Shown piece after piece: positions 6,290-54,060 of a stretch of 64,000 nucleotides of DNA. Position 1 is the first letter of the stretch; each line of letters opens with the position of its first letter. The DNA comes from Fragum whitleyi. Taxonomy: Eukaryota > Mollusca > Bivalvia > Cardiida > Cardiidae. The DNA lies in the NCBI GenBank assembly GCA_948146395.1, contig OX411551.1, positions 62,303,346-62,367,345 on the forward strand, given 5' to 3'. The notes under the pieces were generated by a model. That model made no database searches and was not told where the DNA came from. It saw nothing but the letters and a program-made list of their open reading frames with translations. Position numbers and translations under genes: made by a program.

Positions 6290-6882
6290 GTACCAGTGTT
6301 TGTTAATGAGTTAAAAAAAATATTTTTAACATTATAATAATTTCAATATTCGAGAAGTAAATACTCTCTCGTCTCAATCCTTCTACAAGTACAAAGAGAA
6401 AAGGCCACTATGTTTTTACTGAACACATGGTAATTGAGAGAGCTACACTTATTTCTGATTCTAGTATGTTTAAGAGGAAGCATCCTTTCTCCTAGATTTA
6501 AAAAAATCGTAAAATTAACACTCATTCCAATTAAAAATCAAATCGATCAAAAACGCTCCAAAATCGTTAGAAAACATTTCTAAATAGTTAAAGGCGATCA
6601 ACATTTAATTCAAATCTATCAATTATTTCTATGTTTTTATTAGTTGGTGTAGATTTTTAAGTGTCTGATTGGTACACGAAGACACACAAACAATAAAAGT
6701 ACGTATATCTTATTAAAGGGAGGCAATAAATATCTCGAATTTCGTTCATCTTAAACAAAATTAGCGATATAGGATTACCTCATTTTAATTTCACTCAAAC
6801 CTCGCTCCCCAAACTCATTCAAGTCCATTCCAAAATCATTCCAAAATCAATCATCTTGTCAATTTCACAATGTTGTTAACTG
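6290..6882 (-). mobile_element. MITE with replaced left end, plus flanking duplicate, copy 2
   Basis: 6,290-6,745 duplicates 1,290-1,745. From about 6,515 the sequence is a MITE on the minus orientation, with the AACGCTCCAAAATCG segment, the AAAGGGAGGCAATAAATATC centre, and an intact right end TCAATTTCACAATGTTGTTAACTGTA. The left terminal repeat is degenerate (near CGTAAAATTAACACTC). The LINE fragment begins immediately after this MITE. Confidence 0.65.
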
Positions 6883-6889
6883 TACAAAG

Positions 6890-7560
6890 TACAACCTGCA
6901 TGGAACGGGTTTGTTCGTAAACAGGATATTGAGTTTCATTTCAATTGGTAATTTATTCCACTCATCATTGACTGAAGAAAGAAAAGATCTTTTGTAGAGC
7001 TTATTTCTACTGTTTGGTACTCGCGTAATCTGTATGCGAATGTGCTTTCTATACTTTGAGGCATCAATGAGTTTAGGGTAGTTGGACAGAGACCTTTCAC
7101 CATTTTGAAATATAGAATTAATATGTGTATACGGCTTCTTTCTTGAAGTGATTCCCAACCCGACTCTGCAGATAGATTGTCAAGCGATACAAATTTTGAG
7201 CAACCCGTTGCGATTCTTGCAGCTTCGTATTTGATCTTACCGAGTTGATCCTTAAGTTGTAGTGTACAGTTATCCCAAATAACGACCGCGTATTCGATAA
7301 TTTGGCAGATAAAGGAAAAATGCATTGTTGGTATGAGAGAACGCATTATGTTGATTCTACCCCAAGTTCGCACTAATGATTTTTTATATGATTTTCCCTA
7401 TTACCATCTTCAGAAATAAATATTGCGAAATGTGTGTGTGTTTGTACAGTGGGTATTATTTATTGTATTGGTCATGAACATTTTTGGACGAGTGGACTTC
7501 TTTTGTTTTCTTGTGATAATCATAGACTCGGACTCGAAGTTGTTTGCTTAAAAGACGTTT
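6890..7560 (-). pseudogene. LINE reverse transcriptase C-terminal fragment, frameshifted
   Basis: The minus strand from 7,373 to 6,936 is open for 145 codons and reads as the C-terminal part of a LINE reverse transcriptase. It has TWGRINIMRSL, then IIEYAVVIWDNCT, then KIKYEAARIATG, then LSAESGWESLQERS and LILYFKMVKGL. A second frame (7,158-6,865) carries the continuation SSVNDEWNKLPIEM, a typical tail of these proteins, so at least one frameshift separates the two parts. Above 7,373 the upstream part (ESMIIT, NHIKN) is recognisable to about 7,560 but broken by stops. There is no YADD box or endonuclease domain. It lies next to the right end of a MITE at 6,500-6,882. It is a dead fragment, more complete at the C-terminus than the copy at 1-325. 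Confidence 0.8.
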
Positions 7561-7574
7561 TTCTACACATAGGT

Positions 7575-8960
7575 CCCCTTCCACGACACAGCGTCAGATT
7601 AAAAGAACTAATAGATATTAGAGAAGCTCGCCCAAGTAAAATTTACGTCAAATCCTACCCCTATCCAATGATGTTATTTTTTGAAATATTTTGTACACTT
7701 TATAAGACCATTTTCGATTAGTTCTACGGCCCTTAGCACCAATGTCAGTAGTTTCAGCGAAAATAAATAATTATTTATCTATATTTCAAAGTCCCTTTTT
7801 AAGCCCCGAACAGGATTTAATTAAAGGAGCCACGTGAACACGCCCCTTTCATGAACCGCACTGGCATTCGGAACATTATTCGGACTTTTCCGTAAACTGG
7901 AATATACCTCGGACGTAAGTGTTGCAATTTTGGATTATTTTTAAGGTAATTCAGCTTCTGGTCGTACTTCGGTTTTAATACGCTTGAACAAAATCTCATT
8001 TTGTCAATTCTTTCCGATCGTTTGTGGAGATAGTTTGGACATATTATAATTTGATAACAAAACGCAGAAAAACACTGCTTTTTGTTATCAAATAATAATA
8101 TGCGCACTATATTTCATTTCGTGAACAACAAAAGCTTTATTTCCACTCGCGGCTCCACCACTCGTAAAAAAATAGCTTTTGTTGTTTACCCAATGAATAT
8201 ATCGATCTTACACTGAAACAAACGATTATCCTCTATTTATTCTTTCGTTGATTTTGTTTTATGCAAGGTCATCCTTAGCGGAATCGTTGAGGTTTGTGAC
8301 GTTATATAAACCCATGTGCGAAATGACGCGCTTTCATTGCCGCGCCCGTATTAATCCCGAGGTCTTTTCCGTAGAATCGACGAGGGTTCGCGATTGCCAT
8401 ACTAGGTTTGGTTAAATTCTGACGACTAGTTTCAGAGAAATAGCTATTTAATTTCCCAATTTAATTGGACCTTGTTTGGTGACCCGACGGTCAATAAGAC
8501 GTATACTTTATTTTACCTTTCACCAAAGAAATATTAAACCAAGACATTTGAGAGAGTATGTCCCAATGACCATTGCTCTGCAAATTTGGTTAAATTCTAC
8601 ACAGATCCTTAGTGAAAAAAATATTTTAAGAAAAAAAGAATACGGACAAATGTACTGAGTGAAACATGATGGTTGTCAGTCGACGACAGTTATAGTAATG
8701 GTCACCATTTGAAATTTGCTGAGTTCCAAAATAGAATTTTGTCTTTTTTTGTCAGTTCTTATTTCTTCGCCGAGGCCATTTAATTTATATTCAACTGAAA
8801 CAATTTGAATGCAAATTTACCAAGTATTGTAACTTAATATGGAATCTAATATATTAAACAGGCCATACCTTGCTTCAATATAAATATAAGCGTAGTTTAT
8901 AAAGTAGGAAGTGTCTTTATACATGTACATTATTGGGTTTATTTAAATTAAAAAAAAAAA
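7575..8960. repeat. Direct duplicate linked to the LINE fragment, copy 2, with an insertion
   Basis: This is the second copy of 330-1,225. It is longer because about 550 bp (roughly 7,850-8,405) interrupts the match between the phrase GAACACGCCCC and the phrase GACGACTAGTTTCAGAGAA. Otherwise the two copies are collinear with scattered substitutions and small indels. Confidence 0.65.
7850..8405. mobile_element. ~550-bp hairpin-bearing insertion in the LINE-linked duplicate
   Basis: Absent from the paralogous block at about 680-690. Its outer parts carry inverted phrases (CGGACTTTTCCGTA near 7,880; GGTCTTTTCCGTAGAATC near 8,361). It contains two hairpins: 8,045-8,096, with arms built on TTGATAACAAAA and its complement, and 8,111-8,195, with arms AACAACAAAAGCT and AGCTTTTGTTGTT around a loop of about 35 bases. 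A half copy of the second hairpin (CATTTCGTGAATAACAAAAG) occurs at about 41,089. No coding capacity. Confidence 0.55.
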
Positions 8961-11246: not shown

Positions 11247-12694
11247 AAGTTCTCGATAACGTATTCGGATTATTTTATTTCTTGTGATATCATGTTTAGT
11301 TAGTAGTTAATCACCAGAGACAAACGCTTGTCATTTCGTTTTGGACAAGCACCAGCATATCAATGGTAATATCAATTGCAAGAACTTTTAAGCTAAATTG
11401 GATCTAACATGAGATTTTATTTAAGACAAGTTGATCTAAACTGAGTCTCCAATTGAAATGTTATTTAACGAGCCTTTGCATAATGATCATGATAATTATG
11501 ATCTTAAAACCCCAAAACATTGGAATGAATTTACAATTATTTAAATTATACTCATATTTTACATACGTTCAAGTTAAAGTCCAAAATATGTAATGATTAT
11601 TGTAAACCAATAAATAGGCCAATAATACACGGGGGGTGATGTCCATAATCAGAGCCACTGACTCCGCTTTCAAAATCATGTGTGGAACTTCCGCTCCACG
11701 TGCGTCTCCGATTATGTAGATGTAAACATTTCATTTTGGACTGAAAAAATCGAATAGGTGTCGGAACTTGCTCATTTATATCGGATTTTGTTCATTAATC
11801 ATTAAAAAGTCGAATGCTATTCGACCAGTTATACATTTTGCCACGTTAACGTACTCAAGAACTGTAAAAACGCTCGTTGGTTTCTGTTAAAAACGATTTC
11901 TTCTCAGAGCAATCTTGGGCCAGGAATTTCAAAATACGTGGTTTTACCTCCAAAATGCAATATTCTGGACAAGATTAATAACGTATACTATTGTTTTTAG
12001 TATGCACGAGTTTAACAAAACAAGCACAATGCTCTACCCCAATATACTTGCCTACAATATGAGATAAATCAAAGAAAATAGTTTGGTTCCGATGATGTGG
12101 ATTGGCTCTGATTATGTATCCTGGCTCTGAAGTTGTGGAGACTCTTATTCTTCTTCCCTAACCTCCTTCGATATGCAGTTTCTGCTGGTTTCATGGTGCG
12201 ACTTTTGTCGTTATTCCACGACGCGTGTTGTCTATGTTACTTCTCACCTCATCGTGTTTACTTTTATTATAAAATTCCGGTGACTAGACAGTCAGCTACA
12301 TTTATTTTACTTAAAACCGTAGGCGTACAAGAGAATTGTATGACTATTATTTAGAAAAGAATTTGAAAAGAGATAAAAAAAAATCTACGGAACCTGCCAA
12401 TAGTTTGCCATGATTATCATAATTCGCACGTTTAGCGTTCCTGTTATATCAACGGCACTACTGTCGCTCTTTCAACGTCGATAATTCCATGAAATTTAAT
12501 CAGGTTATATAGCGAGTGGTATCAAACAAATTGTCACAAAGTTCGCGCTCGGATTCAAAGTTTTAAGAAATCCGATTTATATATCTTACAAAAAAGTACG
12601 CAATGATCCTTAAAACGTCCGATTTTTATGTCTCTCGTACCATTTAGTTCGGAATTTTCGGAAAGTTTTAAGCATATGTTTAAATTCCGATTAT

Positions 12695-14547: not shown

Positions 14548-15699
14548 GAACGTCATGTCATTTTGTAAGTATTTCTTAAATATTTCACAATCAGGGAACC
14601 GTACAATACAGTTTCCCTTCGGTTAGGATTTTGCATTCAGTGGTTTCCGTCTCACTGCTCTCGCGAGTATAGTATATTGAATGTGATATAAATCATATTT
14701 CTGTAATATGTTAACATTTTTTACTTTTAATAACTTGCTTAATATTGTATATTTTACAAATGACTGACGGAATATAAACTATTTTCGTTGCTTTTCCTCG
14801 AATTTTAATTGAAAACCATCCATTATACGTTATTTATAAAAGGACGTCATTTGTCACAGTCGTGACCGCCAACTTTTGCCGTTACGGCTTAACGTGCGAA
14901 GTATAATAGGCAGGCCAAAACCACTGGCAGGCTCTGTAGAAATCTTTATCTCTTTTCAAATTCAATACTAAATGATAGCCATATAATTATCCTGTACGTA
15001 CATCTTCTAAGGAATATAAATGTAGCTGACTGTCTAGTCACCGGAATTTTATAATAAAAGTAAACACGATAAGGTGAGACGTAACATAGACAACATGCGT
15101 CGTGGAATGACGAGAAAAGTCGCACCATGAAACCAGCAGAAACTGCATATCGAAGGAGGTTAGGGAAGAAGAATAAGACACTCCACAACTTCAGAGCCAG
15201 GATACATAATCAGAGCCAATCCACATAATCGGAACCAAACTATTTTCTTTGATTTATCTCATATTGTAGGCAAGTATATTGAGGTAGAGTATTGTGGTTG
15301 TTTTGTTAAACTCGTGCATACTGAAAAGAATAGTATACGTTATTAATCTTGTTCAAAATATTGCATTTTGCAGGTAAAACCACGTATTTTGATCTTCCTG
15401 GCTCAAGATTGCTCTGAGAAGAAATCGTTTTGAACAAAAACCAACGAGCGTTTTTACAGTTCTTGAGTACGTTAACGTGGCAAAATGTATAACTGGTCGA
15501 ATAGCATTCGACTTTTTAGTGATTAATGAATAAAATCCGATATAAATGAGGAAGTTTCGACACATATCCCATTTTTTCAGTCCAAAAATGAAATGTTTAC
15601 ATCTACATAATCGGAGACGCACGTGGAGCGGAAGGTCCACACATGATTTTGAAAGCGGAGCCAGTGGCTCCGATTATGGACATCACCCCCGTGAATACT

Positions 15700-32914: not shown

Positions 32915-33426
32915 GACTAGTATGTCACTGACATTAGTGTCTTTAATTATAGGGCGTAGAGCTAAACAGTTGTTAGAACCTATATAAGGATTAACAGGAT
33001 ACTGGCATAATTGCCTATTTAGGACCTAGATTAATACAATTTTAAGCACCTATTAAGAGACTGGCGCAATTTTGGCATAATTGCCTATATAGTCCCTAGA
33101 GTAACACATCATACAGAGAGTGCATACAGAATGTTTATTAATCATGCAATGAGGCCCGTATTGACCTGATATCACCTGTCTGATAACATTTCATGATATC
33201 AGGCAGTCTATTTTTAGAATCAATTTGCATACACTTTCACCTGAATTTCTTTGATTTTTACGGGTGTATCATACTTAAGCACTGAAAATGGTTGCATGAA
33301 AAATAGAATGACATGTTAGTGTCTTAAAATATTAATGTTATCAGGTCTCGGCTGTGAGAATTTATCATGACTCGGAAAAGCCTCGTCATGATAAATTCTC
33401 CCAACCTCGACCAGATAACATTGTAA

Positions 33427-33504
<78 letters not shown>

Positions 33505-34100
33505 GTCTAGTGCATATTGAGCAATTAATCTGAATAAACTTGTAAAAAAACAAACTAGTACGTCACTGACATTAGTGCCTATAATTATAGGGCCTAGAGC
33601 TACACAGTTGTTAGAACCTATATAAGGATTAGCAGGATACTGGCATAACTGCCTATTTAGGACCTAGAGAATAAATAGCAGTAGAGCAATTGAGCATAAG
33701 AGTAATACAATTTTAAGCACCTATATAGAGCCTAGCGCAATACTGGCATAATTGCCTGTATAGTCCATAGAGTAACACATCATATAGAGAGTGTATACAG
33801 AATGTGTTTTATTATGCAATGAAGCCCGTATTGACCTGATAACATAACATGATATCAGGTAGTCTATTTTTAGAAACAATTTGCATACACTTTCACCTGA
33901 ATTTCATTGATTTTTACGGGTGTATTATACTTAAGCACTGAAAAATGGTTGCATGATAAATAGAATAACATGTAAGTGTCTTAAAATATCAATGTTATCA
34001 GGTCTCGGCAAAGCCTCGTCATGATAAATTCTCCCAACCTCGACCAGATAACATTGTTGTTTTAGACACTAACATGTTATTCTCTATTTATCCACCTACT
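32915..34100. repeat. ~640-bp direct duplication containing a hairpin and a TA microsatellite
   Basis: 32,915-33,425 and 33,552-34,055 are collinear: array units, then ACAGAGAGTGCATACAGAATG, CCCGTATTGACCTGAT, TTGCATACACTTTCACCTGA and a terminal hairpin on CTCGTCATGATAAATTCTCC. In the second copy the hairpin arms extend out to ATAAATAGAATAACATGT and ACATGTTATTCTCTATTTAT (33,950-34,095). In the first copy the outer right arm is replaced by (TA)n at 33,431-33,500. Confidence 0.75.
33431..33500. repeat. TA dinucleotide microsatellite
   Basis: About 70 bp of uninterrupted AT/TA repeat, exactly where the duplicate copy has the right arm of a hairpin. Confidence 0.95.
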
Positions 34101-38821: not shown

Positions 38822-39420
38822 AGACAAGATCGTATAATTGACAAAGCGAATGATTTTTGAATAATTTGGGAATGAAATTGAATGAATGCGGCGAGTTTCG
38901 AGTGAATTTCAACGGAGAGAATCCAATATCGTTACTTTTGTTCTGGATGATATTTATAACCTCCCTTTAATAAAACATTCACACAAAACCAGCCCGATTA
39001 GCTCAGTTGGTAGAGCACCGGACTTCAAAACCATTGGAGTTCGGCGGCGTGGGTTCGATTCCCGGGCTGGTACACTAATAAAAACTAATTGTCTTTCGGA
39101 TGAGACGTTAAACCGAGGGTTCGTGAGACGGTGCTTTACACCGAGCACGTTAAAGAACCATGGCGGATCTCAGCAGTAGTTTCGTCATGTATCCTTGCAC
39201 TATCCCCCGTAACAACTAACCGTCTTCTGGGAGCGTCGCTCATATGGGCATGTGCTACGGTAGCGACGATAAATAAACGAAAATACATACATACGTACAT
39301 TCACACAAGTTCTATTGATATCGTTCTATGTCGTCACGGACCAATCAGACGCGTACAAAACAAATGAAATCATTTAAATCGCAGTTGTTTTTTTTTCAAA
39401 TGACTTTCATTTTGAATATA
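38822..39420 (+). mobile_element. MITE split by a SINE, both ends worn
   Basis: Left part 38,822-38,986 (AATTGACAAAGCGAATG, GAATGAATGCGGCGAG, CCTCCCTTTAATAAAACATTC). Right part from 39,309 (GTTCTATTGATATCG, GACCAATCAGACGCGTAC, TTCATTTTGAATATAATTC). The SINE lies exactly between them; the left terminus is decayed and the right terminus is not found. Confidence 0.7.
38987..39296 (+). mobile_element. tRNA-derived SINE with perfect 12-bp target duplication
   Basis: ACATTCACACAA stands at 38,975-38,986 and again at 39,297-39,308. The head has A-box TTAGCTCAGTTGG and B-box GGGTTCGATTCC. The body contains CGGATGAGACGTTAAACCG and CACGTTAAAGAACCATGG, phrases like the conserved central domains of some metazoan SINE superfamilies (which one I cannot tell). 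It ends in an ACATAC-type tail. This is a different SINE family from the one at 60,750. Confidence 0.9.
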
Positions 39421-39429
39421 ATTCTGTTA

Positions 39430-42609: not shown

Positions 42610-43815
42610 GTAGGTTATTTTAGATAAAAGCTGATTTCCCTTAACCTTAAGTGCAACGACCCGCTACTTAGGCCCCCCTTACCAGGGCATTAATCCTGGA
42701 TAATGATATATAGGATAAATAAAAAAGATGATAGGTGACTTGTGACGTCTGAATCGGATAGGTTCACATCGAACTCTTGAAACACAAATTCTGTAGTATA
42801 TTAGACGATGAATAGATAATTGGATTAAAAAAATGATGAATAATTATTACATAAATGATTTTCTGAAAAGTGAATGATTGTTAAACAACGAAGTTAAGTT
42901 TAAATGATATCCGATTATCTCACGATGGTTTACGAAAGATTGGCGACGTTTTGGATGTTTTAGGAGTGACCTCACTGGAATTTACTGGTAAAAGTAGAAA
43001 AAATAGTGCGGCTTGAAAATGCCATTTTGAAGTGGAGAACAGTGATCCACGAGCATATTTATTTGATTTTTTTGCTAGCTTTGCACCTCTTCTTTAATAT
43101 AATGCTTGGCTCGATCTTTTTTGTGCACTATTTCCTTTCCGGGAGGACGGATGAGCGACGACGGGCGTGCCCGAATTAACTGTCCTCTTCATAGGTGGGA
43201 AAAAGACGGTTCCTTTTTTCTGGCTTGAAAAGCCAAAAAATTAAACCTATAAACCCAGTTTTTTTTAGTCTCAAAAGATAGAACAATGAATGTAGATGAA
43301 GCATTAATGATGTAATATATTAACGTATTGTTGTGGAGTGCGCTGCAGCACCTGAAAGTTGATCAATTTTATATAGAACAAAGAAGGCCAAAAATTGGGT
43401 GGGGTCTGACCTTCAACGCGGATTTCTAACCGTTACTCATTGTCGACTCCTAAAAGCGCATTATCATTATCAAACCCTAATTTGCAGAAGGAGTATGACA
43501 AAATTACCTAAGTACTTCAGTTGTGGCCCATAGGCAATAAATTTTCAGACTAATGGGCTTTATCATTAGGGCGCAACTAGGCAGTGAAATTTGCTTTGTT
43601 CACCCAGGAAGAAACCCGATCTTTTCGCACTTACATTTTGTATTGACTAACCAATGACGTAACAGGTCCTCATATACATTCGAGTAGTAAATCCTAATGT
43701 CATTATCTTTTAAACACCAACGGACCAATCCGATACCGTACAAGCTACAAATTTTGATAACAAAATCGCAGGGAAATGAGAATGCATAGATCATATGTTT
43801 AGAGTCGGTTAGATG
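42610..43815. other. Unexplained intergenic stretch
   Basis: A GC-richer patch (43,135-43,190, GGGAGGACGGATGAGCGACG) stands out from AT-rich flanks. No coding signal is supported. Confidence 0.4.
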
Positions 43816-44910
43816 TATTACAGTTAACATATCGAGAAACTGATTCTCATTCCGATTTAAAAAAAACATTCTAAATCGCTCCATCAGCGCTCCATCACTT
43901 CATTCGAAACCCTTACTCCCATCATTCAAAAATGCCCCAAATTGACGAAATAGTGCGGTTCCTTATGTACAAAAAAGGCTTCCGTAGGATTTTCGTGCTG
44001 AAATTGATTTTTTGGCTTTAATTGATTGTTTAGGGGTCAAGTAATCGCAAATTATGCGGGTCCAAATTTTCCGGGCCCATTCCCCGATTTTATGGGCTAT
44101 CAAAGGAGCCCATATGAGCAAAATATGTATTTTCCTAAAAGAGGGCTCATGAGATGTGTATTTTTCTCCTAAAATGATTTCTTTGGTTTGGCTGTGTAAT
44201 TACCGTGGATTGGAGTTTAAATAAAATACAAAAATCCATGTTTAAAAGCTTATTTCACCCTTTTATGGGCTCTCACAGAGCCCAAAAAAGCAATTTTGGT
44301 GTTTTTATATTAGTAGGTTAAGGGGAAAAACCTCGTTTGTTTCGCAATGATTTCTTTAGCCATAGCATGGATTGGATTTTAAAAAAAAATACAAAAATCC
44401 ATATTTTTAAAGCTTATTTCACCCTTTTATGGGCTCTCACAGAACCCAAAATAGCAATTTTGGTGTTTTTATATTGGAAGGTAAAGGTAAAAAAACTTTG
44501 TTTCGAGATGAATTCTTAAGCCCTATTTGGTATTCAGTGTAGGTTGGGTTGAAATACTTGCATGCCCATTTTCTCTAGGGTCATTTTAGAATTTGTTTGG
44601 GCTCTCATAATAGCCCTTATGAGCCGATCGGGGTGTTTTCCTTAAATAGGGTACACACAAAAAATGATATTCCTTTGACTTTTCTTTTCAAATTCAGTTC
44701 AATACCTAGCATTGGTTAGTGTTGATGTATATAATTTTTTCAATTTTTAACATCTGATATTTTAATTGATTGGCTTTAAAATGAGCCCATATGGACAGAT
44801 TTAGAAGTTTTCCAAACTCGCGATTCTTGCCAAAAAAATAGCCCTCTTTATGATGCCAACTTTTATTACATATGGTACCAAAGTATATGAATCAAATTTT
44901 CAAAACCCAT

Positions 44911-45146
44911 ACAGCAAAAACATAATGAAATTGACATAGTGAATGATTGTAAGTTTAAATCGAAGTGAAATTGAATGAGTGGGGGGAGCGTGTTTTGATT
45001 GACTTGTAATGGAGGTAACGTAAAATGGCTAATCGCGTTCAAAATATCCAGTATATCCCTTTAAATGTTTTGAGATTGAATGAATGGAGCGCCGAGTGAA
45101 TGATTTTGTTAGTAATATCTTTCAATTTCACGATGTTCTTAATTGT
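44911..45146 (+). mobile_element. Shortened MITE inside TE1
   Basis: Begins ACAGCAAAAACATAATGAAA and ends TTTCACGATGTTCTTAATTG. Keeps AATGGAGGTAACG and ATGAATGGAGCGCCGAG. Occupies the same place in TE1 as 51,743-51,987 does in TE2. Confidence 0.8.
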
Positions 45147-46021
45147 ACCCGGTGCTTTGGTGCTAAATGAAGCCCATAAGAGAAGGGGGGGTGAGTGTGT
45201 TAGGGGGGTGTTTGCCTAATGCAAATATACGACAGATTAAAATAGTAAACGACATATTTCTTAAATTACCTCACTTTTAATCGATTATATTGATCCTTAA
45301 TAAACCCATATGAGTCAACGTGGTTACTTTGCCAACAATTTGGTTCAAGAAAAGATTTCTGGAGAAAGGCATTTCTGAAGCCTTATAAGTTAACGGGTGC
45401 GGGTCTCTGTAAAACATATGTAAATCAAATTTTCATAGCCCATACCTACATTTGTATTTCATTGGCGCTTAATGAAGCCCATAAGAGAATTTTTCGGCAT
45501 TCTGTAAATATACGACAGATAAATATGTTTATGTTCAATGTTGTTTTTTGCTTTAACATTTACCTAATGCAAACGTAAGCCCTTAAAAATGTCCCTATTC
45601 AATGGGTGCGGGAAGGTATTGAGGGTTTGTTATGGCTAGAGTAAGGAATTTCTTGCTGGCCATATGTATATATAATAAAAAGGCGATGCTTACCAAGTTA
45701 ATGATTACTAGTATTTACTTTAATACCACGGAGAAAATATCGGACTTAGGCAAAGCGCGGCTGCTCTAGTATTGCTTGATTCAAGTAGTTGGAGAAAATA
45801 CTTGGAAAGTTTTTCTATGGTAGATATGTCTTCAAATAAATAAAAATATACTTTAAGTTTTCTTCAGTGTATAGGTTGAAAATTAATATGGATCAAACAT
45901 TAGATTAGATATGAACAGACATTTTTATTACCGCTTCAATCGCAAAACTCCTGCAGTTGACTGTTCCGGTTACGGCTCTGCCCGTCCAAATCTAAAGAAA
46001 CGGACTTTGACCTACTAGTTT

Positions 46022-46297
46022 TCATTGGTCATACAAGCGAAGAGGTAAATCACCAACGATAAGTATGTTGTTTGGTTTGGAAGATGTGTGAAACATGCAC
46101 AGTGACAAGGAAAATTTCTTTAAGCCTTCTTCAAGACAGAATACAAATAATTGGGATTTTTTATCAGTCACTTTCAAATAAGACCCACAAGTACAGCTCC
46201 ATAATATCGAAAACTTTAAACCACGATTTATTAATGAAACTTTTAAGTCATAGAAGAGGCTTGTGTGATCAACGAAAAATATTATCATTCCTTGCAC
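46022..46297 (-). CDS. Unidentified 91-codon ORF in TE1, paired with one in TE2
   Basis: It begins MQGMIIFFVDHTS and contains LKFSILWSCTCGSYLKVTDK. The partner at 49,852-50,097 begins MQGLIIFFDDHRS and contains LKFSMLSSCSCGSYFEMTEK. The shared start and similar reading are notable, but after about 50 residues the copies shift relative to each other. No family is recognised. It may be a remnant exon or chance conservation of homologous DNA; no promoter or splice signals were established. Confidence 0.2.
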   Translation of the reverse strand: MQGMIIFFVDHTSLFYDLKVSLINRGLKFSILWSCTCGSYLKVTDKKSQLFVFCLEEGLKKFSLSLCMFHTSSKPNNILIVGDLPLRLYDQ

Positions 46298-49200
46298 TGA
46301 GTCTCTTGACTATTACAGTACGAAACAATTAAGACAGTAACTGTGGCAACTGAAAAGAAGATAAAGTAAAGTAATCGTGAAGGTCAGAACACTCATGATC
46401 ACCACATTACAGATCAAGTAATTGTCTCCATCAGTAAAGTTGTCAAGAAATTGTGAATCTCATTCGACAAAAATAGTTTAATTCTCCTTCTTGACTTTAC
46501 ACCTCACCACAATCTTGTATCTTACAGTAAAGTAAAATCTATCAGTAAAAAGGGTGTGGTGACCATGGCTGTGTCAAGTTTGATACAGTCGACCGGGGTT
46601 AAATTTTTAGGTATTTTCGACTACAAAGATTTTAGTCTTGTATTAGAAAGCTTCAAACTATATAGTAGTTCCTACATATATTTGGAGGACATTCAAACCA
46701 GCACATATGGGCTTCACCAAGCGCCAATAATCATGTGTAGGCTTTGTAATTAGATTCATTTTTTTTCTAATTCTACCCTCATCATAATCCAACTTAATTT
46801 AATGAGGCTCGAGAAATGTTTGGGACAAGAAATTGATTTTCCCCCATCCATTATTAGGCAAAGTAATCGTGTTGGTTCATATGGGCTCATTAAGATCCAG
46901 TTCAATTTATTAAACATCTCGTTGTTGTTTAAGAGAATTTCGATCGATACTTTGTTTCAACCAATAAAGAACCATTTACAGAAATTTTGGTACCCATGAA
47001 AACCATAAGAAGCGCGGTTTTTCTTAAAACCCAACTTCGGAAACTCATTTTACGGCTCCTATGGGATGCTTTGCAAGCCAACCAAAAGGAATATTAGACT
47101 TTAAATATGGGCTTATTGTTTATTACACCAAAGCTTTCTCAAATACAATAACGTGCTGAAAGTAATTGTTCAACGGTTCAACCGCAATGAAAATTACCTT
47201 TTTCGTAACCCTTATTCAAAAAAGCAAACAATCAGTTCACATGGGCTATTATGCCGGAGAACCCATAAAATCCCGAAATGATTATAGAGAACATAGACCT
47301 GCAAGTATTTCGATGCCAACCAACACTTTATACCAAACAGAGCTTAAGAAATCATCTGTAAACAAAAAATGTTTTTCCTAAACCAATTAATAGGAAACAG
47401 CCAAAATTGCTATTTTGGGCTCTGTGAGAGCCCAAAAATAGTGGTAAAGCTCTTGAAATATGGGTTACTGTATTTTATAAAATGTTCTAACACTGAATAC
47501 ATTGTTAAACTAAAGAAAACATTTAAGAAGAAAAACAAAACGCCTTTTCTGAACCTAGTATTAGGAAAATACGCATTTTGCCCATTTGGGCTCCTTTGAT
47601 AGCCCATAAAATCGGGGAACCGATCCGAAAAATTTGGACCCGCATAGTTTCTGATTGCTTGACCCCTAAACAATCAATTAAACCCAAAAAATCAATTTCA
47701 GCACGAAAATCCTACGGGATTATATAAGGCACCACACTAAAATAGATACAAGCAACATCTAGTTTAAAATTGAAATTGCCACAGAAAAAAAAAAGAAAAA
47801 GACAAAGAAAAATCTCTTTCTTGAATTTTGTAAACGTCTTTTTGGTTCGCAAAGACAAAAAAATCTGTTAGTGCAGTGCCTTATGTAATCCCGTAGGATT
47901 TTCGTGCTGAAATTGATGTTTTGGCTTTAATTGATTGTTTATGGGTCAAGCAATCGGAAACAATGCGGGTCCAAATTTTTCGGGTCGGTTCCCTGATTTT
48001 TTGGGCTCTCAAAGGAGCCCATATGGGCAAAATGGGTATTTTCCTATTACTAGGTTCAGGAAAGGCGTTTTTTTAATTCCTCTTAAATGTTTTCTTTAGG
48101 CGAACATTGTATTTAGTGTAAGAACATTTTAGAAAACACAGTAACCCATTTTCAAAAGCTCTTCCACTATTTTTGGGCTCTCACAGAGCCCAAAATAGCA
48201 ATTTTGGCCTTTTCCTATTAATGGGTTCAGGAAAAACATTATTTTGTTTAGGGATGATTTTTAAGCTCTGTTTGGTATAAAGTGTTGGTTGGCATTGAAA
48301 TACTTGCAGTTCCATGATCTCTATAACCATTTCAGGATTTTACGGGCTCTACGGCATAATAGCCCATGCGAATTGATCTGGATGCTTTTTTCAATAAGGA
48401 TCACAAAAAAAGGTTATTTTCATTGCGGTTGAACCGTTCTCCAATTACTTTCAGCCGTTATTGTTTTAAAGATAGCTTTGGTATAATAAACAATAAGCCC
48501 CTACTTAAAGTCTAATAGTCCTTTGATTGGCTTGCAAAGAATCCCATAGGAGCCGGACAATGAGTTTCCGAAGTTTGGTTTACAGAACATCGGCACTTCT
48601 TATGTTGTTCACCGGTACCAAAATTGCTGCAAATGATTCTTTAATGGTTGAAACAAAATGTCGATCGAAATTCTCTTAACCAAAAACGAGATGTTTAATC
48701 AATTTAACTGGACTTTAATGAGCCCATATGAACCAACATGGACACTTTGCCTAATGATAGGATCGAGAAAATCAATTTCTTGTCTTAAACCTTTCTCGAG
48801 CCGCATTAAATTAAGTAGGGTTATATGATGAGGGTAGAATTAAAAAAAATCAAATATTCAAAGCCTACACATGATTATTGGCGCTTGTTGAAGCCCATAT
48901 GTGAAGGTTTGAATATCCTCCAAATAAAAGGAGGAAGTTGTCTATAGTTTGAAGCTTTCCTACACAAGTCTAAAATCATTGTAGTCGAAAAACCCCGGTC
49001 GACTGTATCAAACTTGCTATATTAATTAAAGCTGATCTTTAACAGATTGGGAAATACGATTTTTGAAAAAAATAATAGATTAATTGGAAATTATGACTTT
49101 ATCGTGTAAAAAAACTCTACAATAAAACGATTCAATCTTGTAAGGAAAAAAAGACAGATATTCCTGAATTCAGCGTATTTCATTCTGAAAAAATAAAGCA

Positions 49201-49851
49201 ACTACTAGCGCCTAAGATATTATTCTTAAATTTTGAGTCAGCTATTTACGCATGCAATTTCTTCTGTTTATCCCATTCTTTCAAAGGTCAATGTCGAAGT
49301 GTTTGTCAATTGGGGAACTTCATATCGAAACATGCAAAAAATATAACATTATACATGAAAATTAACAATTTCGAAATTTATAGACTGGATATAACAAGAT
49401 TAGTTCCTCACTGACATTGCCGATTCGAACATTCAAGCTACATTTTTTTAATGAGTTGTTGTTAGTGCCATACCCATGTGCGATTTTTAAACATCGAAAA
49501 ATGCACATTTCCGAATTTAAGAACCAGATTTGTAATTGTTCTAGATGAAGAACTGTGAAAGAGTAGCTTTAAGCACACAGCCATGGTCACCACACCCGTT
49601 TTACTGATAGATTTGACTTTACTGTAAGATACAGGGTTGTGGAGAGGTGTAAGGTCAAGAAGGAGAATTAATCTATTTTTGTCGAATGAGAAACACAATT
49701 TCTAGACAATTTTACTGATGGAGACAATCGCTTGATCTGTAATGTGGTGATCATGAGTGTTCTGATCTTCACGATCACTTTCCTTTTTCTTCTTTTCAGT
49801 TGCCACAGTTACTGTCTTTATTGTTTCGTACTGAAATAGTCAAGAGACTCA

Positions 49852-50097
49852 GTGCAAGGACTGATAATATTTTTCGATGATCACAGAAGCTGTTTCCATG
49901 ACTTAAAAATTTCATTAATAAATCAAAGTTTAAAGTTTTCGATGTTATCGAGCTGTTCTTGTGGGTCTTATTTTGAAATGACTGAAAAAAAAATCATTAT
50001 TATTCTGTCTTGGCTTATAGAAATTTTCCTTGTCACTGTGCATGTTTCACACGTCTTCCAAACCAAAAACAACATGCTTATCGTTGGTGATTTCTAA
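49852..50097 (+). CDS. Unidentified 81-codon ORF in TE2, paired with one in TE1
   Basis: Homologous at the DNA level with the minus-strand ORF 46,022-46,297. The first ~50 codons align without a gap; then a different indel pattern leads to a stop after MLIVGDF. No catalytic or binding motif is recognised. Confidence 0.2.
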   Translation: MQGLIIFFDDHRSCFHDLKISLINQSLKFSMLSSCSCGSYFEMTEKKIIIILSWLIEIFLVTVHVSHVFQTKNNMLIVGDF

Positions 50098-51742
50098 AAA
50101 GCATTTACCTCTTCGCTTGAATGACCAATGAAAATTAGTTGGTCAAAATCTGTTTCTTTAGATTTGAACGGGCATAGCTATTACCGGAACAGTGAACTGC
50201 AGGAGTTTTGCGCTTGAAGCGGTTATAACAATGTCCGTTCATATCTAATCTAATTGTTGTTCCATATTAATTTCAACCTATACACTTAAGAAAGCTTGAA
50301 GTATATATTTATTTCTTTGAAGACATATCAACCATAGAAATTTCCTTCAACTTTGTAAATCAATCAATACTAGAGCAGACTAGCTTAGCCGTAGTCTGAT
50401 ATTTTCTCCGTGGTATTAAAGTAAATATCGGTAATCATTATCTTGATATGCATCGCCTTTTTAGTACATGTACATACATATGGTCAGCAAGAACGAACCC
50501 TCAGTACCTACATGCATCCATTGAATATAGACATTTTTCAAGGGTTTTCGTTTGCACTGGGTTGGTTGCAAAATTAAAATAAGAATCAGATGACCATGCC
50601 TAATGATTTTCTTTACCAAACATGCATTTCCCGAGGCAGAAAGATATAATTCAAAACTGCAAGATTACATGTACACAGATTGCTGTTAAGTCGATGCAAT
50701 TTAACAGACATCAGATATTGTGCATTTCATTAAAATTACGGGTTCCTATGCTTTGATCTAGTCCATGATCTTTCTTTTGTAGACATAAATGCACCTGTTT
50801 AGATATTATAAAATGTCAAAACGAGTTGAAATGATTAAGTTGTTGTACATGCCTTGAATTTTTGGTAACTGATTTCTATGAAAAATTAAACAAAATAATA
50901 AAAAGATAATATAACTATTTATGTTACAAGAGTTTGTCATAAGCGTTACGTAAGGACTCGATAATCTGTAAGTGTAAACCTTGTATCAACAGAAATTGTG
51001 TGTCTTTGATAGAAACACACATCTGTCACTCTTACTTTTAATTGATGAACTTGTTGTTTGATACAGTTCTAAATTTATACGCATAAGTAAACTATGAATT
51101 ATATACATGTATACTTTAATCGAGACAATAAAGGGCAGTAACAACAATTTGAAACAGAGTAAAGCGGACAAATAAGCAAAAATAAGACGACGTGATTTTT
51201 ATTCGTTGGCACATATAAATGTCAAAACAAAAATACAACATTGAATTAAAACATATTTGTCCATCGTATATTTACAGAATGCGGAAAAATGCTCTTATGG
51301 GTTTCATTAAGCGCCAAAAGAAATAGGAATGGGCTTTGAAAAATTGATTCACATATGTTTTACCGAGACCCGCACCCATTAACTCATAGGGCTTCAGAAA
51401 TACCATTCTTCAGAAATCTTTTCTTGAACCAAATTGTTGGCAAAGTAACCATGTTGACTCGTATGGGCTTATCGGGGGTCCATATAATCGATAAAAGTAG
51501 GGCAATTGGTTAGGAAATTTAAACAGAATATTTCCGACCCAAATAGATCATTGATACCATTTGTGGTTCGAGCGAGCAACATTGAAAACAAACATATTTT
51601 ACGAAATATGTAGTTTGTTATTTTAAACTGTCTTATATTTGCATTATGCAAAACACATACATTCACACACGCGCACACACACAGGCACACACCCACACAC
51701 ATTCTTCTCTTATGGGCTTCAATTAGCTCCAAAGCAACGGGC

Positions 51743-51987
51743 ACAATTAAGAACATCGTGAAATTGACGGATATTCCTAACAAAATCATTCTAAATCATT
51801 CATTCGACGCTGCATTCATTCATTCTCAAAACATTTAAAGGGAGGTAATGGATATTTTGAACGCAATTAGCGATTCCATATTACCTCCCTTTAAAGTCAT
51901 TAAAAAACGCTCCTCTCACTCATTCAATTTCATTTAGATATAATTCCACAATCATTCACTATGTCAAATTCACTATGATTTAACTGG
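51743..51987 (-). mobile_element. Shortened MITE inside TE2
   Basis: Begins ACAATTAAGAACATCGTGAA and ends AAATTCACTATGATTTAACTG. The centre AAAGGGAGGTAATGG and ATTACCTCCCTTTAAAG is better kept than in the TE1 partner. Confidence 0.85.
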
Positions 51988-53061
51988 GTGGGTTTTGAAA
52001 ATTTGATTCATATCCTTTTGTATCATTTGTGGTACAAGTAGACATCATGAAGAGGGCCATCGCGAGTTTGGAAAACTCCTAAATGTGTTCATATGGGCTC
52101 AATTTAAAGCCAATCAAAAAGCATATCAGAAGTTAAAAAAATAAAAATGTTGTTCATCAACACTAACCAACGCTAAGTTTTGAACGTAATTTGAAAAGAA
52201 TGGTCAAATGAATGTCAGTTTTTTGTGAATCTTATTTAAGGAAAACACCCCAATCAGCTCATATGGGTTATAATGAGAGCCAACACAGTTTGCAACATGA
52301 CCCTAAAAATATGGACATGCAAGTATTCCACGCCAACCCATACTGAATACATGTACCGAACAGGGCTTAAGAAATCATCTCGAAACAAAAAAGGTTTTTT
52401 TTCCTTAACCCAACAATATAGAAACACCAAAATGGCTATTTCGGGCTCTGTGAGAGCCCATAAAATGGTGAAATAGGCTTTTAAAACATGGATTTTTGTA
52501 ATTTTTTTCAACAATACACACTAAATACACAGCCAAACCAAAGAAATCACTTTAGGAAAAAAAGTCCCATCTCATGAGACCTCTTTTAGGAAAATACCTA
52601 TTTTGCTCATATGGGCTCCTTTGAGAGCCCATAAAATCGGGAAATGGGCTCGGAAAATTTCGACCCGCATAGTTTGCGATTACTTGACCCCTAAACAATC
52701 AAGTAAAACCAAAAAATCAATTTCAGCACGAAAATCCTACGGGAGCCCTTTTTCGTACATAAGGAACCGCACTATGTAGGCATATTTAATAAAGAAAGGT
52801 AACAAATATCGGTCATTTTGTCAATTTTGAACAAATTAGCGATGTTGGACTTCCTCCCATTGATTTCATCCAAATCGCACTCCACACTTTCATTCAGTTT
52901 CATTCCAAAATCATTCCAATATCATTTAACTTGCCATTTCCCGATGTTACTAATTGTAAGAATAGAAAGTGTAGTCTTTCGCGCGTGAACAAGAATTATT
53001 TATGGAGAGACGGACGGGTACCAAGCCATCGCTATTACTCTTCTGACCTTCGGTCGCTGGA

Positions 53062-54060
53062 GCTAAATCAAAGCGCTAAAAGCGCTGAAGGTCTGGTTTA
53101 TAAAGAGGCAAGGTGACATTCGCAGGCATGCAATTCAATATTTGAATCATTTTAGCAAGGCTTTTTTGGGCGAGCGAAACCAAGGGCTCCATTTACCTAT
53201 AGAGTATCGTAAGCCTCTTCAAAGGAAAAATATCGAAACAATATAAAACAAATGCTTCCCAAGGTAAAGATTACTACGCCCGATACCGCTTTGCAGACAG
53301 GCGCAACTGGCGTTTGTATAATTTTAGTTGAGTTGATTGGTTTGCAACTAGTCAGCCAATTTATCCATTCGATCATTCCGTCTTACACTCGTAGGAATGC
53401 TGTTTTTCTAGGAGAACAAGCTCGTCGGCTCTTTCTTTTACACTGAATTGAATTCCATAAAGAAGCTGTATTTTACTGTGGGGGCACAAGAAATTGGTAG
53501 GGTCAATTTCTCCCTTTCCCACAATATTGTCCACCTTATACTCATATTCCGTTATTTTTATTTAATTTTTTTACCATAGACTTGATTTATTGTCTGCAAC
53601 CTATTCCAAGTTGGCCCAGTCTAAAATTTTGTCTTCTGTTTAAGGGTTAAAGGATTGAACAATGCTTTTATTTTTTTCTAATTTAGATTAATCCATTTCA
53701 AGACAACACATGTTGAGACAGGTCCAAATTGTAAAGGGTTGCAGATTTAATACAATAAGTGGGCAAATTAGTAAAATTTGTAGCAGAAAGGGTAGATAAT
53801 ATTAGGGAGAAAGGAGAAAGTATTAGTTAGCAGCATTTTCTTCTTTTCCCTATTAGCAAGGTCATCCGTCAAGATTAAATAAAAAAAAACATTTTATCTT
53901 TAACACAGCAGTGATTTTGGCAGTGATAAGTAAGAAAATATCTGGTATACATGATAAGGACAAGGTTAATAATAAAGTTTATATTCCAGAAAATTGACCT
54001 CGTGTGTTGTTTCTTCTATTTAGTTCCCTCGCCTTCAGTACTATCAGTACTTTGATTTTA
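53062..54060. mobile_element. Possible ~1-kb TIR element with CAGTACTTT-type ends
   Basis: The left border reads TAAATCAAAGCGCTAAAAGC, then GCTGAAGG; the right border is CCTTCAGTACTATCAGTAC, then TTTGATTTTA, an imperfect inverted match over about 27 bases. The interior has no transposase. ORF 53,252-53,446 is unremarkable. It is a candidate only, because the internal sequence has not been seen elsewhere in the window. Confidence 0.5.

What the first reader, a model, noticed from the sequence alone, without database searches (positions are those of the whole stretch)
43820..52957. Two long-TIR transposons inserted head to head into a single MITE, forming an 8.8-kb palindrome
The sequence directly shows MITE left part, TA, TE1, TA, MITE middle (about 130 bp), TA, TE2, TA, MITE right part. 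Removing both elements restores a normal-length MITE in normal order. The palindrome therefore arose from two insertions of one family in opposite orientation about 130 bp apart. This is either a target preference for this MITE or a linked double transposition. Such a structure could extrude or give long double-stranded RNA if transcribed, which is inference.
Basis: seen in the sequence. Interest (0 to 1): 0.75.

Follow-up and report, generated by a model that had tools for sequence, protein, structure and literature searches.

The report
Two transposons nested in one MITE
Two old, apparently non-coding copies of one transposon family landed separately, in opposite directions, inside the same small transposon and so made an 8.8-kb inverted repeat; it is a striking but ordinary case of nested insertion, and no preference for that target was seen.

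Summary
TE1 (43953-47737) and TE2 (47871-52772) are two copies of one apparently non-coding long-TIR element in opposite orientation. Each is flanked by TA, and both sit in one 447-bp MITE (43820-52957). A MITE profile built with the locus masked finds left part, spacer and right part in order; the rejoined MITE outscores all 1000 controls. Outer ends match outer ends, inner match inner (53 sites against 2 and 0).

The proposed causes do not hold. TE1 and TE2 fall in different subfamilies, each grouping at 100/100 with copies elsewhere; TE1+TE2 as sisters is rejected (AU p 1.4e-5). This excludes inverted duplication and argues against one donor hopping twice. None of 100 outer flanks tested (of 254 exact-end copies) is MITE at the junction; the MITE covers 2.1% of those flanks and 2.0% of a small random sample.

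Two independent insertions are best supported. The coincidence is a priori uncommon (0.003-0.017 inverted pairs within 131 bp expected genome-wide) but was picked post hoc. The arms are about as alike (87.7%) as copies of the two subfamilies elsewhere, so no homogenisation is seen. dsRNA or extrusion is untested.

The parts
43820..43952 (+). Left part of the target MITE, including the TA
   Evidence: Profile hit 43819-43953 = model 4-136; begins TACAGTTAAC, much as other copies do
43953..47737 (+). TE1, 3785 bp, apparently non-coding long-TIR element, subfamily A
   Evidence: Ends GTGCGGTTCC...CCACAC between TAs; tree with L016, L023, L031 100/100
44206..44522 (+). Tandem duplication (unit about 164 bp), diagnostic of subfamily A
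   Evidence: Tandem repeat; two copies in TE1, L016, L023, L031, at most one in the other 16 elements
44916..45148 (-). Shortened copy of the same MITE family inside TE1 (model 3-88 + 274-438)
   Evidence: the same internal copy in 18 of 20 genomic loci
47740..47870 (+). Spacer = middle of the target MITE, including the TA before TE2
   Evidence: Model 127-248 at 47736-47868; rejoined score 210.4 against best control 202.5 of 1000
47871..52772 (-). TE2, 4902 bp, same family, opposite orientation, other subfamily
   Evidence: 87.4% to TE1 when reversed; tree with L015 100/100
49017..49574 (-). Segment A, not found in TE1 and subfamily A, present wholly or partly in the other 16 elements (TE2 included)
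50563..51216 (-). Segment B, not found in TE1; parts of it in 17 of the 18 other complete copies
51743..51979 (+). Shortened copy of the same MITE family inside TE2 (model 5-88 + 274-435)
52773..52957 (+). TA of TE2 and right part of the target MITE
   Evidence: Profile hit 52775-52951 = model 259-438

Best explanation
Two members of one family of about 5-kb non-autonomous TIR transposons, from two diverged subfamilies, inserted independently at two TA sites 131 bp apart and in opposite orientation in one MITE that was already there. Shown: family, ends, TA flanks, MITE order, separate subfamilies. Inferred: cut-and-paste movement by a transposase coded elsewhere, and that the closeness is chance. 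Which of the two came first is not resolved.
For: 254 exact outer ends in the genome, 0 for the reversed control, 241 of them with TA in front. All 18 complete copies among the 20 fetched have TA on both sides. TE1 groups with L016/L023/L031 and TE2 with L015, each 100/100; TE1+TE2 as sisters rejected, p-AU 1.4e-5, and 6.2e-6 on columns filled in at least 95% of rows (the test was run after the tree had been seen). Diagnostic duplication and segment A agree with the tree in 20 of 20 elements. TE1-TE2 identity, 87.7% over 3509 shared columns, equals that of TE1 to 13 copies of the other subfamily (88.1%) and of TE2 to the 3 subfamily-A copies (87.4%). MITE order and continuity. The 100 tested copies are spaced as expected at random (KS p 0.62, 94 gaps).
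Against: Chance closeness is a priori uncommon: 0.003-0.017 inverted pairs within 131 bp and 0.012-0.056 within 440 bp expected for 254-560 copies placed at random. The two have similar end branches (0.053 and 0.048), which would also fit one burst in one region. In the middle of the arms TE1-TE2 identity is a little above the cross-subfamily values (0.908-0.912 against 0.870-0.910 in two of 14 steps).
Confidence: 0.87

Rival explanations
1. One insertion followed by inverted duplication of the element (template switch, fold-back repair), or a chimeric-read fold-back artefact.
For: Gives a palindrome directly.
Against: TE1 and TE2 are in different subfamilies and their sister grouping is rejected; each end is exact with its own TA; the MITE runs on in order across the locus; the arms differ by 12.6% and by segments A and B.
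Confidence: 0.02
2. Linked double transposition: one donor moved twice, or one copy hopped locally.
For: Closeness; similar end branches.
Against: Two different source lineages; no pair closer than 33 kb among the first 100 exact copies and no departure from exponential spacing. Two donors moving at the same time into one site is not excluded.
Confidence: 0.05
3. The family prefers this MITE, or DNA like it, as a target.
For: Both elements lie in one MITE; the element itself carries a shortened copy of the MITE; the window is MITE-dense (14%).
Against: 0 of 100 outer flanks elsewhere are MITE at the junction (95% upper bound about 3.6%, own arithmetic); MITE is 2.1% of flank bases against 2.0% of 16 kb from 20 arbitrary sites, a small control with MITE at only one site. 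Of 18 right flanks, 3 hold MITE within 400 bp and none at the junction.
Confidence: 0.05

Closest known systems
Yeast 'fragile site 2' (two inverted Ty elements, 6 kb each, 280-bp spacer), as described in passages of PMC7999016
   Same: Two copies of one mobile element, inverted, with a short spacer between
   Different: Those arms are retrotransposons (recalled); here the arms are DNA elements 12.6% diverged with a spacer of about 130 bp, and fragility was not tested
Tetris / DAIBAM of Drosophila virilis, abstract of PMC4079207
   Same: Apparently non-autonomous element with TIRs holding repeats, and a MITE in the same genome
   Different: [quoted passage not shown] here the long-TIR element and the MITE have different ends (GTGCGGTTCC against CAGTTA), and the shared part is an internal MITE copy
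Mu killer of maize (recalled, not looked up)
   Same: Inverted duplication of transposon sequence that could give a hairpin RNA
   Different: No transcript evidence here; the arms arose by two insertions, not by duplication

Membership tests
Non-autonomous TIR DNA transposon (class II) | Terminal inverted repeats | tested here: met
   TE1 ends 43982-44360 / 47342-47717 79% inverted; TE2 ends about 74%
Non-autonomous TIR DNA transposon (class II) | Target-site duplication of fixed length | tested here: met
   TA both sides in 18 of 18 complete copies and in TE1 and TE2; 241 of 254 exact ends have TA in front
Non-autonomous TIR DNA transposon (class II) | No transposase of its own | tested here: inconclusive
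   No Pfam match reaching a curated cut-off in 6 ORFs from TE1/TE2, of 49 ORFs of 50 aa or more listed there (one match at E 0.052, 13.4 bits against cut-off 25); the longest stop-to-stop frame inside 20 genomic copies is 185 aa, and those frames were not searched against Pfam
Tc1/mariner superfamily | TA target-site duplication | tested here: met
Tc1/mariner superfamily | Related DDE/D transposase or known autonomous partner | not tested
   No coding partner was looked for in the genome
Foldback element | Long TIRs made of internal tandem repeats | tested here: not met
   TIR likeness reaches only about 0.4-0.6 kb of 3.8-4.9 kb; one tandem duplication in TE1, not an array; definition recalled
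The window's MITE family (target) | About 440 bp, inverted ends of the form TACAGTTA..ACATCGTGAAATTGACA, parts in order left-middle-right | tested here: met
   the middle part only weakly by itself

The most novel reading that the evidence does not exclude
Read-through transcription of this locus would make a long, imperfect hairpin RNA against both subfamilies at once, so that an accidental double insertion acts as a natural silencer of the family, in the manner of maize Mu killer (recalled). Nothing here excludes or supports it.
Probability: 0.03. Interest if true: 0.6.

Novelty: new member of a known kind. Interest (0 to 1): 0.2.

Why it matters
It shows how a long quasi-palindrome can arise without inverted duplication: two separate landings of one repeat family. 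The subfamily test separates the two origins and could be reused on other transposon palindromes. Beyond that it is ordinary nested insertion.

Tried and rejected
Inverted duplication and fold-back artefact: rejected by subfamily tree and AU test. A single large element with long arms: rejected, four separate ends with TA and outer/inner site pattern 53:2:0. Target preference: tested on 100 of 254 exact-end copies, not seen; this sample is the first 100 in contig order (C1 to part of C6), exact ends only, with flanks of 400 bp and a 20-bit cut-off, so short MITE stubs could be missed. Local clustering: not seen in the same 100. In the 100 listed of 154 ATA-preceded places, the window's own pair, 8805 bp apart, is the only one closer than 10 kb (C7-C10 computed, C1-C6 read by eye and); the remaining places could not be listed because the tool did not complete. 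Gene conversion between arms: identity runs from about 0.80 to 0.945 in full steps and is highest at the two ends of the element, including the ends next to the spacer (0.918); copies elsewhere show the same profile across subfamilies, so no homogenisation is inferred; two middle steps are slightly higher. Pfam: of 10 window ORFs none reached a family cut-off. Protein search of the frame 6936-7397 gave 20 unnamed relatives, host not identified. The 18-mer in viral contigs: none; in genome contigs: 3 single places in bacteria, taken as chance and not examined further. Paper searches: element and MITE end strings, 0 papers; topic searches (26, 39 and 66 returned no paper) showed no report of this arrangement in the titles and abstract starts listed; only the abstract of PMC4079207 and passages of PMC7999016 were read.

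Small slips in my own scripts: one search joined the pieces one base short at TE1, redone; one search took TE1 one base too long. Loci L024 and L027 (no complete far end within the fetched stretch) were left out of the 18 complete copies and the tree; L019 and L021 were left out of the 13 'other' copies.

Full report
What is there. The window holds two elements of one family head to head. TE1 is 43953-47737 and TE2 47871-52772, each between TA dinucleotides. Reversed, TE2 aligns with TE1 from end to end at 87.4% over 3529 aligned positions, with a 166-bp stretch only in TE1 and segments of 558 and 654 bp only in TE2.

Two elements, not one. The four 500-bp ends fall into two pairs: outer with outer (83.5%) and inner with inner (90.9%), while the four other comparisons are 74-75%. 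At informative sites, 53 group outer with outer and inner with inner; 2 and 0 support the other two groupings. Each element thus has a left and a right end that had diverged before the copies spread.

The target. A MITE profile was started from three window copies and iterated with 43700-53100 masked. Scanning the whole window it finds the left part, the spacer and the right part in order: model 4-136, 127-248 and 259-438. Rejoined they make 447 bp and score 210.4 bits; 500 shuffles of the spacer reach at most 201.1, 500 other pieces of window DNA at most 202.5, and the reversed spacer 178.7. The spacer by itself is weakly conserved, 35-58% identical to 17 other copies, so the case rests on the joint score, order and lengths.

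The family in the genome. The assembly is 1.22 Gb in 38 contigs and the window is C9:62303346-62367345. The 18-base outer end occurs 254 times exactly, its reversed control never; 241 have TA in front. With up to 3 mismatches there are 825 against 263 for the control, a count that must include inner ends, since an inner end matches within 3 mismatches. Of 20 copies fetched, 18 are complete and all 18 have TA on both sides. In 18 of the 20 fetched loci the element carries a shortened internal copy of the same MITE; L018 and L024 lack it. No coding capacity was recognised in what was examined, but most frames were not searched.

Two donors. In a tree of TE1, TE2 and the 18 complete copies, TE1 joins L016, L023 and L031 (100/100) and TE2 joins L015 (100/100). 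A tree with TE1 and TE2 as sisters is rejected, p-AU 1.4e-5, and 6.2e-6 using only columns filled in at least 95% of rows (run after the tree had been seen). The duplication occurs twice in TE1, L016, L023 and L031, in which segment A was not found; the other 16 elements carry segment A wholly or in part and have at most one copy of the duplicated unit. Inverted duplication of one insertion is therefore excluded, and two hops of one donor are unlikely.

No homogenisation. TE1 and TE2 are 87.7% identical over 3509 shared columns; TE1 is 88.1% identical to 13 copies of the other subfamily and TE2 87.4% to the three subfamily-A copies. Step by step the profile is much the same, with higher identity at both ends of the element; two middle steps (0.908 and 0.912) are slightly above the comparison values (0.870-0.910). 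Arm-to-arm gene conversion over much of the length is thus not seen.

No target preference seen. The first 100 listed exact-end copies were tested by their 400-bp outer flanks: MITE hits of at least 20 bits occur in 4 (L015, L046, L074, L105), none at the junction; 95 of 100 have TA directly in front. MITE makes up 2.1% of these flanks and 2.0% of 20 arbitrary 800-base pieces, where it occurs in one. The same profile detects both outer flanks of the window pair (63.8 and 108.2 bits). Right flanks of the 18 complete copies hold MITE in 3 (L021, L023, L029), none at the junction; in L029 a MITE begins 16 bp away. Gaps between the 100 copies fit an exponential (KS p 0.62, 94 gaps), the closest pair being 33 kb apart.

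How unusual. Random placement of 254 to 560 copies predicts 0.003-0.017 inverted pairs within 131 bp in the genome, and 0.012-0.056 within 440 bp. The pair is thus a rare outcome for this one family, but it was picked because it looks striking, and a genome holds many families. The window is also rich in this MITE: 7837 of 55177 bases outside the pair, or 7817 at the 20-bit cut-off used for the flanks, both 14%, against about 2% in the flank and control samples.

Consequences. A review describes two inverted 6-kb Ty elements with a 280-bp spacer in yeast as stable in wild type and prone to breaks when DNA polymerase alpha is reduced (passages of PMC7999016). The present pair, with arms 12.6% apart and a spacer of about 130 bp, is expected to be fairly stable; this is inference. 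Whether it is transcribed into a hairpin RNA is unknown.

Verdict. Observation confirmed; nested double insertion confirmed; the two special causes offered are not supported.

Noticed in passing
window 1-64000: The MITE family covers 14% of the window outside the pair but about 2% of the genome samples taken: a local MITE-dense region about 2.2 Mb from the end of contig C9.
   Followed up: partly
38987-39296: A tRNA-derived SINE-like element (Rfam tRNA hit 38992-39072; SINE is my reading) sits inside another MITE copy (38822-39429, minus strand).
   Followed up: partly
11632-12436 and 14887-15690: Another long inverted repeat, 92% identical over about 0.8 kb with about 2.4 kb between.
   Followed up: no
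32916-33430 and 33554-34063: Direct repeats of about 0.5 kb, 81% identical, 123 bp apart.
   Followed up: no
2-1748 and 6292-8958: Three repeated blocks (2-563/7237-7788, 678-1220/8405-8958, 1296-1748/6292-6747) in changed order.
   Followed up: no
44916-45148 and 51743-51979: The element itself carries a shortened copy of the MITE into which it inserted; the same is seen in 18 of 20 genomic loci.
   Followed up: partly
6936-7397: Open frame of 153 aa with 20 unnamed relatives at 38-52% identity; it reads like a reverse transcriptase tail (recall).
   Followed up: partly
genome-wide element flanks: 154 of 241 TA-preceded exact ends have A before the TA, a mild ATA bias at the target.
   Followed up: no
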